Shown piece after piece: positions 16,965 through 49,554 of a stretch of 64,000 bases of DNA. The translations under genes were made by a program, and so were the position numbers. The notes under the pieces are model-generated. The model did no database searches, had not been told where the DNA came from, and saw only the letters and a program-made list of their open reading frames with translations. The stretch is from Candidatus Sulfopaludibacter sp. SbA3 (GTDB lineage: Bacteria; Acidobacteriota; Vicinamibacteria; Vicinamibacterales; UBA2999), in the NCBI GenBank assembly GCA_945903265.1, contig CAMDNQ010000001.1:124001-188000 (forward strand). Direction: 5' to 3'. The first letter of the stretch is position 1, and every line of letters starts with the position of its first letter.

Positions 16965-18734
16965 GTGGCCGTCATCCATCTGCTGCCGACTGACCTCGCC
17001 AATCAGATCGCGGCCGGCGAGGTGGTGGAGCGTCCCGCCTCGGTCATCAAGGAGCTCGTCGAAAACTCCATAGACGCCGGCGCCCGCCGCATCGCCGTCA
17101 CCGTGGAGATGGGTGGAAAGAAGCTGATTCGCGTCGAGGACGACGGCTCCGGCATGGTGCCTGACGACGCGCGGCTGGCGATCGAGCGCCACGCGACGAG
17201 CAAGATCGGCCGGTCCGAGGATCTCGAAGGCATCGCCACTCTCGGTTTCCGCGGCGAAGCGCTGCCGAGTATCGCCTCCGTATCTCATTTCGTTCTGCGG
17301 AGCCGCGCGCGCGGAAGCGAATCCGGCACCGAAGTGCGCGTCAACGGCGGGGCAGTGACGGCGGTGACCGAGGTAGGCATGGCGGAAGGCACCTGCGTCG
17401 AGGTCGCCGATCTCTTCTACAACCTGCCCGCGCGCCGTAAGTTCCTCAAGTCGGACGGCGCCGAGTCCGGCCAGATCTCGCGGATCGTCACGCAGCTCGC
17501 ACTCTGCTATCCCGAAATCGGCTTTACGCTGACGAGCGCCGGCCGCAAGGTCATTCAGTGCCCGCCTGTCTCCTCCCTGCGCGACCGGCTGTATCAGCTC
17601 TACGGGGACCGTGCCGACCTCGTGGAAGTCCGCCGCGACGGCGACATCAAGGTCCTGGGTTACGTCGCAGCGCTCGCCGAGCAGGGCCCGACACGCGGAC
17701 CCCAGAACGTCTTCGTCAATCGCCGCATCGTCAAGGACCGGACGATCGCCCACGCGATCATCGACGCCTACAGCGTCGCGTCGATCAAGGAGCGCAGCCC
17801 GGAGGTCCACCTGTTCATTTCGATGCCGCACACGGCGGTCGACGTGAACGTGCATCCGACGAAGGCGGAGGTCCGGTTCCGCGATCAGTCGCACGTCCAC
17901 GAAGTGATCCGCCGGACGCTCGGAGACGCGCTCGGCCGCGGCCCCGCGCCGCAGCTGCAGCTCGAGCCGCCGAGACCGTACGATGCGCCCGCGACGACAC
18001 TGCCGTTGCCGGCTGGCTATGCGACCACATATCCCAGCCGTTGGACCTCGGAGCCATCGGGCACCCCCGCACCGCCGCACCCCTTCGCACCTTCGCACGA
18101 AGCCTTCGCACCCTCGCCCGATCGCACCCTCGCGCCTTCCGAGGCCGCTCCCGTCATCCGTCCAATGATCGCGTTAGGGCAGTTCCGCGACACGTTCATC
18201 ATCGCCGTCGACGATGAAGGCATCGCGATCGTCGATCAGCATGTGGCGCACGAGCGTGTGCTGTTCGAGCGGATTCTGGAGCGGTTGACGACGGGACGGA
18301 TGGAGAGCCAGCGGCTGCTGGAGCCGATGCTCATCGACGTATCGGCGGCGGCGCGGCAGACGCTGATCGCTCACGCCGCGGATTTCGAGCGCCTGGGATT
18401 CGAGCTGGAGGAGTTCGGCGGTGGCGCCGTGCGCATTGCGGCGTTCCCGGCGCTCCTGACACGCGAGGATTGCGAGGCGGCGGTACGTGCGATGGCACAG
18501 GACCTCGAGGGGCTGGATCGCGGGTCGCGGGTCGAGGACGCGATCAAGCGTATCGCCGCGACGATGGCGTGCCACGCGGCTGTGAAGGCGAACTATCCGC
18601 TCACAGGAGAGAAGATGAGCCACATCCTCGACGAGCTGCGGCGCACCGCGTACTCGACAATCTGCCCCCACGGCCGGCCGGTTATGCTGCGCCTGACCCG
18701 CCGCGAGGTCGAAAAGAACTTCCAGCGGATTTGA
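16965..18734 (+). CDS. mutL: DNA mismatch repair protein MutL
   Basis: GHKL ATPase of about 589 aa from GTG 16965. The N-terminal domain has IAAGEVVERPASVIKELVEN, DDGSGM, RHATSKI and GFRGEALPSIASV. The C-terminal domain keeps the endonuclease motif as DQHVAHERVLFE (Ala to Val at one position), ACHAAVKAN and CPHGRP, so this looks like a nicking-competent MutL rather than the E. coli type. The Pro-rich linker (about residues 345-395) contains an 8-aa repeat made by a DNA octamer repeat, noted separately. A longer frame to TTG 16932 lies in corA and is not used. Confidence 0.95.
   Translation: MAVIHLLPTDLANQIAAGEVVERPASVIKELVENSIDAGARRIAVTVEMGGKKLIRVEDDGSGMVPDDARLAIERHATSKIGRSEDLEGIATLGFRGEALPSIASVSHFVLRSRARGSESGTEVRVNGGAVTAVTEVGMAEGTCVEVADLFYNLPARRKFLKSDGAESGQISRIVTQLALCYPEIGFTLTSAGRKVIQCPPVSSLRDRLYQLYGDRADLVEVRRDGDIKVLGYVAALAEQGPTRGPQNVFVNRRIVKDRTIAHAIIDAYSVASIKERSPEVHLFISMPHTAVDVNVHPTKAEVRFRDQSHVHEVIRRTLGDALGRGPAPQLQLEPPRPYDAPATTLPLPAGYATTYPSRWTSEPSGTPAPPHPFAPSHEAFAPSPDRTLAPSEAAPVIRPMIALGQFRDTFIIAVDDEGIAIVDQHVAHERVLFERILERLTTGRMESQRLLEPMLIDVSAAARQTLIAHAADFERLGFELEEFGGGAVRIAAFPALLTREDCEAAVRAMAQDLEGLDRGSRVEDAIKRIAATMACHAAVKANYPLTGEKMSHILDELRRTAYSTICPHGRPVMLRLTRREVEKNFQRI
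18082..18140 (+). repeat. Octamer tandem repeat (CTTCGCAC) inside mutL
   Basis: Period-8 repeat built on CTTCGCAC/CCTCGCAC with some broken units. It lies in the MutL linker (about residues 373-392) and encodes an 8-residue period, with FAPS or LAPS recurring. The reverse complement of the same octamer occurs in rsmB at 45531-45590. Confidence 0.7.
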
Positions 18735-21942: not shown

Positions 21943-21977
21943 ACCACCAACCACCAACTATCAACCACAAACCATAT
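21943..21977. repeat. Intergenic 7-bp tandem repeat (ACCACCA), copy 1
   Basis: Two exact ACCACCA heptads followed by diverged units (ACTATCA, ACCACAA, ACCATAT) in the 56-bp gap between the divergent methyltransferase and greA starts. The same heptad occurs at 24705-24725 and 49520-49554. Confidence 0.75.
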
Positions 21978-23602: not shown

Positions 23603-24705
23603 TGCATCGCGACACCGAGATCGTCCATGCCGGCTTCCGGAAAAACACGGAAGCCGGAAGCTTTCTGGCCGGCCCCCAGTTTTCATCGACCTACACGACG
23701 CCAGGCCAGCCTGCGGAGCACGAGCTGACGTACGGACGCTTTCACAATCCCACCTGGACCGCGTGGGAGTCGGCGCTCGGGCTGCTCGAGGGCGGGCATG
23801 CCGTGGCCTACGCGTCCGGGATGGCTGCCGTTGCCGCGGTGCTTGGCGTGACAGTAAAACCCGGCGAGACCGTTGTCCTGCCCGCCGATTCGTACTACGC
23901 GGTGCGCCGGCTTGCCTCCACATGGCTGGAGCCGATGGGCATCACGATCCGCCTGGCGCCAACACGCGACAGCGCCGCGCTGGGCGCACTCGATGGCGCC
24001 AAGATGGTGTGGCTGGAAACGCCGAGCAATCCGCTGCTGGACGTGTGCGACATTCGCGCGATTGCCGACGCCGCCTGCGCAAAGGGCGTTCTCGTCGTCG
24101 TCGACAACACCACGGCGACTCCGTATCTGCAGCAGCCGCTCGCCCTCGGCGCGACGTACGTCGTCGCGTCGGACACGAAAGCCATCAGCGGCCACAGCGA
24201 CGTGATCCTCGGCCATGTGGCTACGGCAGACGCCGAGCGGGCAGAGGCGTTGCGGGCGTGGCGGACGCATCACGGGGCGATTCCCGGGCCGATGGAGGTG
24301 TGGCTTGCACACCGGTCGTTGCCGACGCTCCCGGTGCGGCTCACGCGGCAGTGTGCGACAGCGGGCAGCCTCGCGGCGGCGCTTGCGGCCAATCGAACGG
24401 TGTCCGCGGTCCACTATCCCGGGCTGGCCACGCACCCCGGGCACGCGATCGCGAAAAAGCAGATGACGGGCTTTGGCAGCCTCGTCAGCTTCGACCTCGG
24501 CACCCGCGAGCGTGCTGACACGTTCCTCGGCGCGCTCTCCCTCGTCAGGCAGGCGACGAGCTTCGGCGGCGTGCATTCGATGGCGGAGCGGCGCGCGCGG
24601 TGGGGCAGTGACGCGGTGGGCGAGGGGTTTATCCGCTTCAGCGTCGGCTGCGAAGCCTCAGAGGACATCCTCGCGGACGTCGAAGCCGGTTTAGGACGGC
24701 TTTAA
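23602..24705 (+). CDS. Trans-sulfuration family PLP-dependent enzyme
   Basis: Fold-type I PLP enzyme of 367 aa of the Cys/Met metabolism family (cystathionine gamma-synthase/beta-lyase/gamma-lyase). Marks are YGRFHNPTWTAWESALGLLE, the ring-stacking region YASGMAAVAAVL, WLETPSNPLLDVCDI, VVDNTTATP and the PLP lysine in SDTKAISGHSDV. The C-terminus has FGGVHSMAERRARWG and FIRFSVGCE. It is a little shorter than typical members (about 380-400 aa). Which sulfur reaction it performs is unclear. ATG 23602 overlaps the previous stop. It ends at the ACCACCA repeat. Confidence 0.88.
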   Translation: MHRDTEIVHAGFRKNTEAGSFLAGPQFSSTYTTPGQPAEHELTYGRFHNPTWTAWESALGLLEGGHAVAYASGMAAVAAVLGVTVKPGETVVLPADSYYAVRRLASTWLEPMGITIRLAPTRDSAALGALDGAKMVWLETPSNPLLDVCDIRAIADAACAKGVLVVVDNTTATPYLQQPLALGATYVVASDTKAISGHSDVILGHVATADAERAEALRAWRTHHGAIPGPMEVWLAHRSLPTLPVRLTRQCATAGSLAAALAANRTVSAVHYPGLATHPGHAIAKKQMTGFGSLVSFDLGTRERADTFLGALSLVRQATSFGGVHSMAERRARWGSDAVGEGFIRFSVGCEASEDILADVEAGLGRL

Positions 24706-24725
24706 CTACCAACCACCAACCACCA
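24705..24725. repeat. Intergenic 7-bp tandem repeat (ACCACCA), copy 2
   Basis: ACTACCA followed by two exact ACCACCA heptads, filling most of the 25-bp gap between two convergent genes. The first heptad touches the stop codon of the PLP-enzyme gene. Confidence 0.7.
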
Positions 24726-29968: not shown

Positions 29969-30828
29969 TGGCACTGCAGGCGAACGATCGGCCGGCGGCG
30001 GTAGACGAGGCGCTCGGGCCTGGCGCGCCCATCGTCGTCTTCGACAAGGTGTCGCTGGCGTTCGACGAGAAGGTCGTGCTCCGCGAGGTGAGCTTCACCC
30101 TGATCACCGGTCATACGAAGATCTTTCTGGGCGCGAGCGGCTCTGGGAAGTCGACGATCCTGAAGCTGATCGTCGGCCTGTTGAAGCCCGATAGCGGTGT
30201 GATCTGGGTCAACGGCGAGCGCGTCGATTCGATGACCGAAGTCGAGATGATGAAGGTGCGCGACGACCTCGGGATGGTCTTCCAGGAGGGCGCGCTGTTC
30301 GACTCGCTGACGGTGGCGGAGAACGTCGGCTACAAGCTCTACGAAGAGACGGACATGCCGCTGCCCGAGGTGCGCGCCCGGGTAGAGGAAGTGCTCGGGT
30401 TCATCGGCCTGGCGGAATTCATCGATCGGATGCCGTCGGACCTCTCGGGCGGCCAGCGGCGCCGGGTGGCGATCGCGCGCGCGATGGCGTTCAAGCCGCG
30501 GATTTTGCTCTACGACGAGGCGACCACCGGTCTGGATCCGATCACAGCCGATACCGTCGATGATGAGATCATCAAGCTGCGCGATCTGGAGAACGTGAGC
30601 TCGATTGTCGTGACGCACCAGCTGCGCGACGCGTTTCGCGTGGCGACGCACGAGGCGGTCCGCGCCGCCGACGGCGTCCAGATCGTCCTGGCCGATCCCG
30701 AGAAGGCGGAAGAGGCCGAGTTCATCATGTTGAAGGACGGGCGGATTGCGTTCGAAGGACACGCCGCCGAGATTCGCGAAGCGGCCAGGAGCGACGCGTA
30801 TATCCGGGCGTTTCTGTCGTCGCACTAG
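29968..30828 (+). CDS. mlaF: Mla-type ABC transporter ATP-binding protein
   Basis: MlaF-like ATPase of 286 aa. Walker A is GASGSGKSTI, the Q-loop is MVFQEGALFDSLTV, the ABC signature is LSGGQRRRVAIARA and Walker B is ILLYDEATTGLDP; the H-loop is VVTHQ. The C-terminus (FIMLKDGRIAFEGHAAEI) resembles MlaF. The stop codon is immediately followed by a 7-bp repeat tract that separates it from mlaD. Confidence 0.93.
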   Translation: MALQANDRPAAVDEALGPGAPIVVFDKVSLAFDEKVVLREVSFTLITGHTKIFLGASGSGKSTILKLIVGLLKPDSGVIWVNGERVDSMTEVEMMKVRDDLGMVFQEGALFDSLTVAENVGYKLYEETDMPLPEVRARVEEVLGFIGLAEFIDRMPSDLSGGQRRRVAIARAMAFKPRILLYDEATTGLDPITADTVDDEIIKLRDLENVSSIVVTHQLRDAFRVATHEAVRAADGVQIVLADPEKAEEAEFIMLKDGRIAFEGHAAEIREAARSDAYIRAFLSSH

Positions 30829-30858
30829 AGACTCAGGACTAGAGACCAAGGATTACAT
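30824..30858. repeat. 7-bp tandem repeat (ACTAGAG type) between mlaF and mlaD
   Basis: Five heptads in register: ACTAGAG, ACTCAGG, ACTAGAG, ACCAAGG, ATTACAT. The mlaF stop TAG lies in the first unit and the tract ends just before the mlaD ATG. It resembles the heptameric short repeats known from filamentous cyanobacteria in form and placement. Confidence 0.6.
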
Positions 30859-32981: not shown

Positions 32982-33023
32982 ACTTATTCCGTTCCAACTA
33001 TTCGGTTCCGACTATTCGGTTCC
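32982..33023. repeat. 14-bp tandem repeat over the upp stop codon
   Basis: Three adjacent 14-bp units of the form (A/G)ACTATTCGGTTCC, the first one diverged. The upp stop codon lies in the third unit and the others repeat its last codons plus stop beyond the gene end, giving spare in-frame-like stop copies. Confidence 0.65.
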
Positions 33024-33635
33024 ATAGAGGCGATCGCCGAAGTCCCCGAGTCCGGGCACGATGTACTTGTGCGCGTTCAGGTGGTCGTCGACGACCGGCG
33101 TATAGACCGGAACGTCCGGGTGGTGACGCTCGACGAGGGCGATGCCGTCGGGCGCCGCGACGATGCAGATCATGCGAATCAGCTTCGCGCCGGCGGCCTT
33201 GATCATGTCGATCGCCGCGACCGCGCTGCCGCCGGTGGCCAGCATAGGGTCAATCATCAGCACATAGCTCTGACTCAGGTCCGCGGGGAGCTTCGAGTAG
33301 TACTTCGACGCAATGGCGGTCGCTTCGTCGCGCTGGAGGCCGATGTGGCCCACGCGCGCGGCCGGCAGCAGTTCGAGCACGGCGTCGAGCATGCCCAGGC
33401 CGGCACGCAGCACCGGTACGACGACGACGTCGCCCTTGACCACCACGCCGCCGGCCGGCCCGAGCGGGGTCGTGACCGTGCCCCGCGTTGACGGGACGTC
33501 GCGAAGCGCTTCGGCCGCCAGGAGCACGCTGATTCGATTGGCCGCACGACGGAACGCCGGCGGGTCCGTGCGAACGTCCCGGAGCTCCATGAGCGCATCC
33601 TGCACGAGCGGGTGGGTCACGATGTGGGTGGGCAC
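33012..33635 (-). CDS. upp: Uracil phosphoribosyltransferase
   Basis: UPRTase of 207 aa making UMP from uracil and PRPP. Marks are the N-terminal HPLVQDALMELRDVRT, VVVPVLRAGLGMLDAVLELL, the PRPP loop IDPMLATGGSA and the uracil-binding C-terminus YIVPGLGDFGDRLYGTE. The start is GTG 33635. It is divergent from the amidohydrolase gene, with overlapping -10 boxes between them. It belongs to a local group of nucleobase and pentose salvage genes. Confidence 0.96.
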   Translation of the reverse strand: MPTHIVTHPLVQDALMELRDVRTDPPAFRRAANRISVLLAAEALRDVPSTRGTVTTPLGPAGGVVVKGDVVVVPVLRAGLGMLDAVLELLPAARVGHIGLQRDEATAIASKYYSKLPADLSQSYVLMIDPMLATGGSAVAAIDMIKAAGAKLIRMICIVAAPDGIALVERHHPDVPVYTPVVDDHLNAHKYIVPGLGDFGDRLYGTE

Positions 33636-45430: not shown

Positions 45431-46816
45431 CTATGTTGAGATCGTACCACGCACGATCGCGGCGGCAAAGAACGCCTCGAGGCCGTGGGCGAAGGGGAGT
45501 GTTCGAAACATACCGCGGGAGTCGAGGAGCGGTGCGAGGGTGCGAGAGTGTGAAGGTGCGAGGATGCCTGGTTCGGAGGTGCGAAGGTCAAATAGCGTGA
45601 AGTCGTTCCGGGCGGCCAGGAAGGCATCGACGACGGCTTCGTTCTCTTCTGGCTCACTGGAGCAGGTCGAGTAGACGAGCCGTCCACCAGGCCGCACCAG
45701 GTCCGCGGCGCGATGCAGCAGCGCGATCTGATGTGCGGCCAGGCTTGCCAGATCTCCCTCGCGTCGCCGCCACCGGATGTCGGGATCGCGGCGGATGGTG
45801 CCCAGGCCGGAGCAGGGCGCGTCGATCAGGATGCGGTCAAAGGCGGGTCGAAACGGCAGCGGTCCCGACGAAGGAATGTGGACCACGCGGATGGATTGGG
45901 CGCCGGAGGCGGCGACGGTGGCGCGCAGGAGCTTCATGCGGCGCGCACGGATGTCCGACGCGACGACCATGCCGGTGTCCTGCATGGCGCCCGCAAGCGT
46001 GACCGTCTTGCCGCCCGGTGACGCACACAGGTCGAGGATGCATTCCCCCGGCCGTGCGCTCATCGCCAGCGTCACGAGCTGCGAGGCCTCATCCTGCACG
46101 AAAAACGATCCGTCCTTCACGAGGCGCATGGGATTGCCGGACGACACGAGGAGACCGTCGGGGGCGTGGGGCGTCGGATCGGTCTCGATCCCGTCGGCAC
46201 GCAGCGCGGCGGCCAGGGCATCCCGATCCGTCTTCAGCGTGTTGGTCCTGAGCGTGAGCGCCGGCACCTCGTTGTTGAAACGAACCCAGCGTTCGGTCGC
46301 GTCGAACCCGTAGCGATCCAGCCACCGGCTCACCAGCCATTCGGGATGTGAGTGCGTGATGCCAAGGTAGCTGAGCGCCGCAGCGCGATCGGCGTCGGCA
46401 GGCGGGCGCGGAGGCAGCGGCAGCCGGTGCCGCTCGCGGAGCAGCGACCGCAGTACCGCGTTCACGAATCCAGAGGCATGTGACTGTCGCGCGAATCGCG
46501 CCAGGTCCACCGCATCGTCCACGACTGCCGACGCCGGCACGCGGTCGAGATGCATCAGCTGATAGACGCTGAGGCGGAGGATCTCCATGACGTCCAGGTC
46601 GATCTTGTCCGCCGGACGCCCGGCGAAATGGACGATCAGGTGATCGGCCGTCCGCCGCCACCGCAGGGTCCCGGTGACGATGTCGCCGGCCAGCGCGCGA
46701 TCGCGCTCGTCCTGCAGCGGATCGCGGCTCGCCGCCAGTGCAGCGGGCAGGTCGGCGCGGCCAGTGGCAATGGCCCGCAGCGCCTGGAACGCCGCGATTC
46801 TGGCCGGCGCAGGCAT
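45431..46816 (-). CDS. rsmB: 16S rRNA m5C methyltransferase RsmB
   Basis: 461 aa. An N-terminal NusB-like RNA-binding domain (AAFQALRAIATGRADLPAAL, LRLSVYQLMHLDRVP) precedes the SAM domain: LDLCASPGGKT, IDAPCSGLGTIRRDPDIRW with the first catalytic Cys and YSTCSSEPEENEAVV with the second. It would methylate C967 of 16S rRNA (E. coli number). Before the C-terminal RTLPF...FFAA segment lies an insert with LAPSHSRTLAP, encoded by the octamer repeat. It overlaps fmt by 1 bp. Confidence 0.93.
   Translation of the reverse strand: MPAPARIAAFQALRAIATGRADLPAALAASRDPLQDERDRALAGDIVTGTLRWRRTADHLIVHFAGRPADKIDLDVMEILRLSVYQLMHLDRVPASAVVDDAVDLARFARQSHASGFVNAVLRSLLRERHRLPLPPRPPADADRAAALSYLGITHSHPEWLVSRWLDRYGFDATERWVRFNNEVPALTLRTNTLKTDRDALAAALRADGIETDPTPHAPDGLLVSSGNPMRLVKDGSFFVQDEASQLVTLAMSARPGECILDLCASPGGKTVTLAGAMQDTGMVVASDIRARRMKLLRATVAASGAQSIRVVHIPSSGPLPFRPAFDRILIDAPCSGLGTIRRDPDIRWRRREGDLASLAAHQIALLHRAADLVRPGGRLVYSTCSSEPEENEAVVDAFLAARNDFTLFDLRTSEPGILAPSHSRTLAPLLDSRGMFRTLPFAHGLEAFFAAAIVRGTIST
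45531..45590. repeat. Octamer tandem repeat (GGTGCGAG) inside rsmB
   Basis: Units of 8 bp on the plus strand: two exact GGTGCGAG, then AGTGTGAA, GGTGCGAG, GATGCCTG, a 7-bp unit and GGTGCGAA. The reverse complement (CTCGCACC/TTCGCACC) is the octamer seen in mutL. In RsmB it covers residues about 409-429. Confidence 0.7.
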
Positions 46817-49511: not shown

Positions 49512-49554
49512 GGTTGGTGACCACCAACCACCAACCATCAACCACCAACCACCG
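49512..49554. repeat. Intergenic 7-bp tandem repeat (ACCACCA), copy 3
   Basis: Five heptads at 49520-49554 (ACCACCA twice, ACCATCA, ACCACCA, ACCACCG), preceded by GGTTGGTG, which is complementary and makes an 8-bp inverted repeat (49512-49529). It lies in the 82-bp gap between the divergent aroC and DUF4399 genes. Confidence 0.8.

What the first reader, a model, noticed from the sequence alone, without database searches (positions are those of the whole stretch)
45531..45590. The same octamer family sits inside rsmB and encodes the same peptide
The reverse complement of the mutL octamer appears in rsmB and gives LAPSHSRTLAP, close to the mutL peptide (FAPSPDRTLAPS). Two unrelated genes share one repeat in frame, which points to a dispersed element able to insert into coding sequence at loop positions without breaking the protein.
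Basis: seen in the sequence. Interest (0 to 1): 0.55.

Follow-up and report, generated by a model that had tools for sequence, protein, structure and literature searches.

The report
Dispersed octamer repeat tolerated inside genes
A short 8-letter DNA repeat scattered through a group of uncultured acidobacteria, mostly between genes, has also ended up inside several housekeeping genes, where its length and sequence let it add a peptide without breaking the reading frame.

Summary
Window 45531-45585 is a degenerate array of the octamer GGTGCGAN inside rsmB (minus strand); the same octamer lies in mutL (18061-18137). The window holds 11 two-unit matches against 1.95 expected. The octamer is dispersed: 14 clusters in this genome; 14 of 43 family genomes, 301 hits against 1 for the reversed pattern; 16 of 193 class genomes. 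Of 143 arrays inspected, 114 lie between genes. Others sit inside mutL, rsmB, nuoL, dnaX, glgE and more, with the C-rich strand as sense in 16 of 18 internal cases. RsmB carries 8 residues (24 bp, three octamers) that relatives lack. The shared peptide is not independent evidence: every reading frame of an octamer array gives the same octapeptide. Between genes the G-rich strand points from the gene edge into the spacer (28 to 0 in facing pairs), matching strand rules published for G-rich heptamer repeats of Xanthomonas and Nostoc. It is a new octamer variant of a known kind. How it spreads is not established; the RVT_1 search found no reverse transcriptase in this genome.

The parts
45531..45589 (+). 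degenerate octamer array GGTGCGAN (about 7 units) inside rsmB; the C-rich strand is sense
45431..46816 (-). rsmB, 16S rRNA m5C methyltransferase (NusB domain + RsmB/F domain) that carries the array; 8 residues longer there than close relatives
18061..18137 (-). degenerate octamer array in the mutL linker (G-rich strand is minus; C-rich strand is sense)
16965..18734 (+). mutL; the array lies between the DNA_mis_repair and MutL_C domains
49520..49553 (.). heptamer array (AACCACC/GGTGGTT)n between divergent genes: another short-repeat family of the same class
21943..21974 (.). heptamer array of the AACCACC family between genes
24704..24725 (.). heptamer array of the AACCACC family at a gene end

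Best explanation
It is one copy of a lineage-specific dispersed short tandem repeat, unit GGTGCGAN, resident mainly in spacers of one family of acidobacteria (Vicinamibacterales by the titles of related records). Copies grow and shrink in steps of 8 bp and occasionally arise or land inside genes. Inside a gene three features let a copy survive. First, the unit has no stop codon in any frame of either strand (six unit versions tested). Second, a net change of 24 bp (three units) keeps the frame. Third, in the C-rich sense orientation every frame encodes the same hydrophilic, Pro/Ala/Ser/His-rich octapeptide, which linkers tolerate. Selection therefore leaves arrays mostly in permissive places (MutL and DnaX linkers, the NuoL loop, a C-terminal stretch of RsmB) and mostly in that orientation. 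In this genome the family looks degenerate, and in-gene copies are 6 of the 11 arrays that passed the census threshold. Shown: dispersal, in-gene positions, absence in the relatives examined, orientation bias, stop-free unit. Inferred: tolerance as the reason for the positions, and spread by copying of short tracts during repair or replication followed by slippage (my probability for that spreading step is about 0.4).
For: Dispersal: 20 paired matches in 14 clusters, control 2; 301 hits in 14 of 43 family genomes, by my sum; reversed control 1 hit; 16 of 193 class genomes; control 2 hits, both in one genome. In-gene: searches list MutL, RsmB, NuoL, GlgE, a flippase and DnaX in the own genome; relatives have DnaX (G003, G011, G015), MutL (G009, G015), the second NuoL loop (G003, G009, G011), a radical SAM/TRAM protein and a nucleotidyltransferase (G002) and, with the G-rich strand as sense, an MFS transporter (G011). 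Absence in relatives: none of the other 41 RsmB loci aligned has the insert (one is cut off before it, four look like a second copy of a genome already counted). The three genomes with octamer DNA in MutL (G000, G009, G015) are not a clade in the tree, and each has a nearest neighbour without it (support of those pairs: not given, 99, 46). Orientation: C-rich sense 16, G-rich sense 2, among 18 arrays at least 20 codons from either gene end. Frame identity. In-gene share 6 of 11 here against 17 of 132 in relatives (Fisher p 0.0025).
Against: No empty site was recovered at DNA level: the nearest held relatives are of other genera (RsmB at most 70% identical), so boundaries and target duplications could not be read. 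RsmB's array starts and ends on codons seen in relatives, which also fits local expansion. The RsmB model gives a confident helix at 421-430 (block pLDDT 91), on array-coded residues, which is not a plain loop. The NuoL loop is hypervariable also in relatives without the octamer. The intergenic polarity rule is not predicted by tolerance alone.
Confidence: 0.72

Rival explanations
1. Local slippage only: each array grew in place from native codons that happen to resemble the octamer (CTT CGC for Leu-Arg, CTC GCN CC for Leu-Ala-Pro), with no transfer between sites.
For: RsmB relatives carry CTT CGC at DLR (G003, G004, G011) or Leu-Ala-Pro codons (G014, G015, G022) at the two ends of the array. 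Period-7 arrays of many different units are abundant in this genome, which a slippage bias would give.
Against: One octamer recurs in 14 clusters of this genome, in spacers and in genes; GGTGCGA as such is not enriched, so there is no excess of seeds; the same unit recurs across genera while the reversed pattern hardly occurs.
Confidence: 0.2
2. Selected nucleic-acid structure: spacer arrays are maintained as RNA or DNA hairpins acting on transcript ends or translation starts, and the in-gene copies are by-products.
For: Strict polarity: of 31 neighbouring arrays within 300 bp, 28 are G-rich then C-rich, 3 run the same way, 0 the reverse. Six of six facing pairs tested fold better than all 200 shuffles (picked because they contain facing arms). 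Some spacers carry arrays in several genera (10 of 120 array groups, in-gene ones included, are shared).
Against: Arms match their own partner no better than another spacer's arm in G011, G015 and G009, where selected pairing would do so; G051 is an exception (own 32.8, cross 24.4, sd 5.5). No T-run terminator is evident by eye in the spacers (no scan was run).
Confidence: 0.25
3. Selection for the peptide: LAPSHPRT-like linkers are functional and the DNA repeat is incidental.
For: The same peptide type recurs in MutL, DnaX and NuoL of several genera.
Against: Other genera fill the same places with different repeats: 24-bp repeats in MutL of G004 and G013, heptamer-coded runs in DnaX of G000, G011, G013 and in NuoL of G000, a 9-mer and a palindrome in MutL of G014, or none. 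Most arrays (114 of 143) lie outside genes.
Confidence: 0.05

Closest known systems
GGGNATC-type G-rich heptamer repeats of Xanthomonas and Nostoc (Rehm et al. 2015, PMC4692102; abstract, intergenic-repeat section and discussion read)
   Same: Dispersed G-rich short tandem arrays biased to spacers; near starts on the non-coding strand and near stops on the coding strand; under-represented on the coding strand inside ORFs.
   Different: Unit is 8, not 7; a three-tetrad G4 motif is found in only 4 of 143 arrays; no peak at four units; placement inside conserved genes is prominent here.
TAACTGA heptamer repeats of Beggiatoaceae, Cyanobacteria and Bacteroidetes (2015, PMC4679880; passages read)
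   Same: Scattered phylogenetic spread, mostly intergenic; the paper discusses the translation product of the repeat as a likely control on where it can sit.
   Different: TAACTGA gives stop codons when translated forward and lies mainly just upstream of starts; the octamer has no stop in the versions tested.
Octamer-dimer satellite family of Mesorhizobium ciceri, (AGGGGAGT)2, and heptamer families of Chloroflexus (PMC6749651; passages and one section read)
   Same: A genome-specific dispersed short repeat built on an octamer.
   Different: Other unit, other phylum; in-gene use not described in the parts read.
Rickettsia palindromic elements (Ogata 2000, through passages of the review PMC2229807)
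   Same: Small repeats in frame inside conserved protein genes and tolerated.
   Different: RPEs are 105-146 bp palindromes with terminal inverted repeats; here 8-bp units without a fixed length or conserved core.
Cyanobacterial STRR heptamers (recalled; the term was only searched)
   Same: Degenerate short tandem repeats dispersed through a genome.
   Different: Heptamers, other phylum.

Membership tests
Dispersed G-rich heptamer repeats (Rehm et al.) | unit length 7 | tested here: not met
   252 of 432 spacings between exact cores are 8; 19 are 7
Dispersed G-rich heptamer repeats (Rehm et al.) | over-represented in non-coding DNA | tested here: met
   114 of 143 arrays between genes in stretches that are 89% coding; the relatives' stretches were chosen because they hold arrays
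Dispersed G-rich heptamer repeats (Rehm et al.) | G-rich on coding strand after stops, on non-coding strand before starts | tested here: met
   tandem spacers: near stop 36 to 11, near start 36 to 2; convergent 14 to 1; divergent weaker, 9 to 5
Dispersed G-rich heptamer repeats (Rehm et al.) | four G-tracts able to form a G-quadruplex; preference for four units | tested here: not met
   three-tetrad motif in 4 of 143 arrays (two-tetrad motif in 103); 16 arrays have 4 exact cores, 40 have 2
Rickettsia palindromic elements | in-frame copies inside conserved protein genes | tested here: met
Rickettsia palindromic elements | palindromic element of 105-146 bp with terminal inverted repeats | tested here: not met
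   in-gene copies are single arrays but for one doubtful facing pair (L240); facing pairs have cores of 2 to 166 bp
MITE | conserved core between terminal inverted repeats | tested here: not met
   cores of the 28 facing pairs differ in length and, read by eye, in sequence; two G011 copies share a core
MITE | target-site duplication | not tested
   no empty site from a close strain available
DNA uptake sequence | single copies enriched genome-wide | tested here: not met
   84 observed, 79 expected in 464 kb of the own genome; 75 of the 84 isolated
RT-made tandem repeats (DRT10/telomerase-like, PMC12632851, passages read) | a reverse transcriptase in the genome | tested here: not met
   RVT_1: none in G000 (98.9% complete); matches in 8 of 13 octamer-bearing and 5 of 30 other family genomes, one of the 5 below the cut-off (octamer status)

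The most novel reading that the evidence does not exclude
The arrays are scars of directional repeat addition: 3' ends at chromosome breaks were extended with GGTGCGAN units, much as telomere repeats are added, and then rejoined. That would give the observed facing arms (G-rich strand pointing inward from both sides), arms of unequal length drawn from a common unit instead of from each other, single arms where one end was extended, and in-frame scars inside genes.
Probability: 0.06. Interest if true: 0.85.

Novelty: new variant of a known kind. Interest (0 to 1): 0.45.

Why it matters
It gives a natural set of copies across genera in which a short DNA repeat recurs in the same protein linkers, so the rules by which repeats become protein sequence can be tested. 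It also extends to another phylum and an 8-bp unit the strand rules known from Xanthomonas and Nostoc, and the 28-to-0 polarity of facing arrays makes the unknown spreading mechanism of such repeats testable.

Tried and rejected
Reverse transcriptase as driver: RVT_1 co-occurs loosely (8 of 13 against 5 of 30) but is absent from the own genome and from G002, G017, G022 and G051. In the 16 RT loci 6 hold a single octamer core and none an array; my motif found no RT frame in 4 of the 16. From reading them, most look like group II intron RTs; no family search was made. Absence now does not exclude a past or very divergent RT.

Uptake sequence: rejected for this genome. MITE with terminal repeats: not supported. 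Three-tetrad G-quadruplex: not supported. Arms copied from one another by hairpin-templated inversion: not supported in three of the four genomes with at least four pairs.

Heptamer-type arrays (period 7 and 14) of the own genome do not share the octamer's inward polarity (intergenic 4 inward, 11 outward; gene-edge 5 and 4), so the polarity is family-specific or my G-richness label does not suit them.

GlgE: of 15 other genomes searched with a 289-residue piece, one (G013) gave a near full-length match and one (G035) a 24-residue match; the loop of G013 is also Pro/Ser-rich, so GlgE says little. DnaX of the own genome has only two octamer cores and is a weak case. The nitroreductase-like genes L240 and L323 are less certain than the rest; L323's coding score is low, L240 holds a facing pair. 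In NuoL the own-genome array (L016) and those of G009 and G011 are in different paralogues.

Dropped or uncertain rows: L044 is cut by a contig end; L261 and L256 gave no loop motif; L381 and L382 no start motif; 12 own loci were given to and 11 arrays passed. The census covers the own genome and 10 relatives; G053, G014, G028, G101 and G144 also have the octamer but were not fetched for it, and for G011 only part of the hits was. P-values treat arrays as independent although some are shared between genomes. NuoL was missing for five genomes in the tree (one search list). The gene calls come from a simple codon-usage caller written here.

Full report
Observation. The + strand at 45531-45589 is a run of about seven degenerate octamers, GGTGCGAN. 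It lies inside rsmB, which runs on the minus strand (Pfam NusB and RsmB/F domains). The same octamer is in the linker of mutL at 18061-18137. In the window the two-unit pattern with up to two mismatches occurs 11 times, 9 of them in these two arrays, against 1.95 expected; none of 100 shuffles reached 11.

The same peptide. It is a consequence of the octamer: because 8 and 3 have no common factor, 24 bp of any octamer array pass through all three frames, and each frame gives the same cyclic octapeptide (LRTFAPSH or PRTLAPSH for the C-rich strand; VRRCEGAK type for the G-rich strand). None of the six unit versions translated there has a stop in any frame. What remains informative is the DNA, the orientation and the position.

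Dispersal. In the own genome (3.52 Mb, 45 contigs) two exact cores 1 to 40 bp apart occur 20 times in 14 clusters, with 2 control hits. Within the family, three-unit arrays with up to two mismatches occur in 14 of 43 genomes, 301 hits by my sum of the rows, and once for the reversed pattern; one of the 14 (G045) has a single poor hit. With one mismatch allowed, 16 of 193 genomes of the class have it, 13 of them in this family; the control gave 2 hits, both in one genome. Titles of related contigs are mostly Acidobacteria among the best matches, with one named Vicinamibacterales and one Vicinamibacteraceae. G011 is richest, with many exact three-unit arrays; the own genome has none.

Inside genes. 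In the own genome the array is in MutL, RsmB, NuoL, GlgE, a polysaccharide flippase and, weakly, DnaX. RsmB is 8 residues longer than its close relatives at this point (9 against one of them). None of the other 41 aligned loci has the insert, though one is cut off before it and four look like a second copy of a genome already counted. An AlphaFold model of RsmB (mean pLDDT 95.8) has its lowest internal block, 77, at residues 411-420. The next block, 421-430, is a predicted helix with pLDDT 91 and covers most of LAPSHSRTLAP (419-429), so the array-coded residues are not simply a disordered loop; surface exposure was not measured. The best solved-structure match ends at residue 415, but others run through to 454.

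Recurrence in the same places. MutL linkers of G009 and G015 carry the same octamer DNA. G002, G004 and G013 carry 24-bp spaced repeats there, G014 a 9-mer and a palindrome, G022 and others none. A tree of RsmB, MutL and NuoL columns does not group G000, G009 and G015; each has a nearest neighbour without the MutL octamer, though some nodes are weak. The second NuoL loop holds octamers in G003, G009 and G011, an inverted pair of GATCCC-type heptamers in G000, and 21-24-bp repeats in G004, G013 and G015. DnaX linkers hold octamers in G003, G011 and G015, and AACTCCC-type heptamers in G000, G011 and G013, less clearly in G022. These places look like sinks for whatever short repeat a lineage has.

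Census. 143 arrays, 11 from the own genome and 132 from 10 relatives, were classified with a gene caller written here: 114 between genes, 6 across gene edges, 23 inside. Of 18 in-gene arrays at least 20 codons from either end, 16 have the C-rich strand as sense. Six of 11 own arrays are in genes against 17 of 132 in relatives (Fisher p 0.0025), as if spacer copies had decayed first here.

Polarity. In tandem spacers the G-rich strand is sense near stops (36 to 11) and antisense near starts (36 to 2); in convergent spacers it is sense to the nearest gene (14 to 1); in divergent ones the trend is weak (9 antisense, 5 sense). Neighbouring arrays within 300 bp are G-rich then C-rich in 28 cases, same direction in 3, the reverse in none. 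Single arrays follow less cleanly: near stops 15 to 8, near starts 16 to 1, convergent 12 to 1, divergent 5 to 5. Arms match their own partner no better than other arms in three of four genomes tested; G051 is the exception. Rehm et al. report the same strand rules for heptamers in Xanthomonas and Nostoc (PMC4692102).

Wider class. Tandem Repeats Finder on the window plus 400 kb of the own genome gives 25 non-overlapping period-7 arrays: 7 in genes, 7 at gene edges, 11 between, in DNA that is 92.7% coding. Periods 9 (26 arrays) and 12 (52) are commoner in all, but 20 and 46 of them lie in genes. The octamer is thus one of several short-repeat families of this genome.

Mechanism. Shown: dispersal, stop-free unit, frame neutrality, in-gene positions, orientation bias, polarity. 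Inferred: tolerance explains the in-gene set; the unit spreads by copying of short tracts and grows by slippage. The polarity is not explained by tolerance. Selected hairpins and directional end addition are the alternatives kept open. RVT_1 found no reverse transcriptase in the own genome.

Novelty. Short dispersed tandem repeats, their translation as a limit on where they sit, and in-frame repeats in conserved genes are each in print (PMC4692102, PMC4679880, PMC6749651, PMC2229807). Searches for the octamer core with 'tandem repeat' (66 papers, 20 listed), for Acidobacteria with tandem repeats, heptamer, octamer and intergenic (4 papers), for Vicinamibacter with repeat terms (10 of 6,557 listed) and for octanucleotide repeats (9 papers) listed no title that describes this family. 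Only titles and abstract starts of those listings were seen, bar the papers named above, and the library holds open-licence papers only.

Noticed in passing
window 21943-21974, 24704-24725, 49520-49553; L205:3204, L207:10004, L210:3130, L219:18593: A second dispersed family, heptamer GGTNGTT/AACNACC, at gene edges and in spacers of the same genome.
   Followed up: partly
L209:11104-11214 and the second NuoL of the own genome (L267): GATCCC-type heptamers as inverted pairs inside called genes; in NuoL in frame.
   Followed up: partly
L214:17242, L215:7062: GTCTCTA heptamer arrays just after a gene end and before a terminator-like hairpin with a T-run; a related palindrome is in the mutL linker of G014.
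   Followed up: no
L255 (G015), L264 (G013), L266 (G004): 21-24-bp in-frame repeats built around TCGCACC and GTGCGA in the NuoL loop, seemingly a related higher-order family.
   Followed up: no
G011 contig C13: Unusually dense octamer arrays, often with the variant unit GGTGCGTCCGAC.
   Followed up: no
window 32985-33024 and 30824-30852: 14-bp tandem repeats at gene edges.
   Followed up: no
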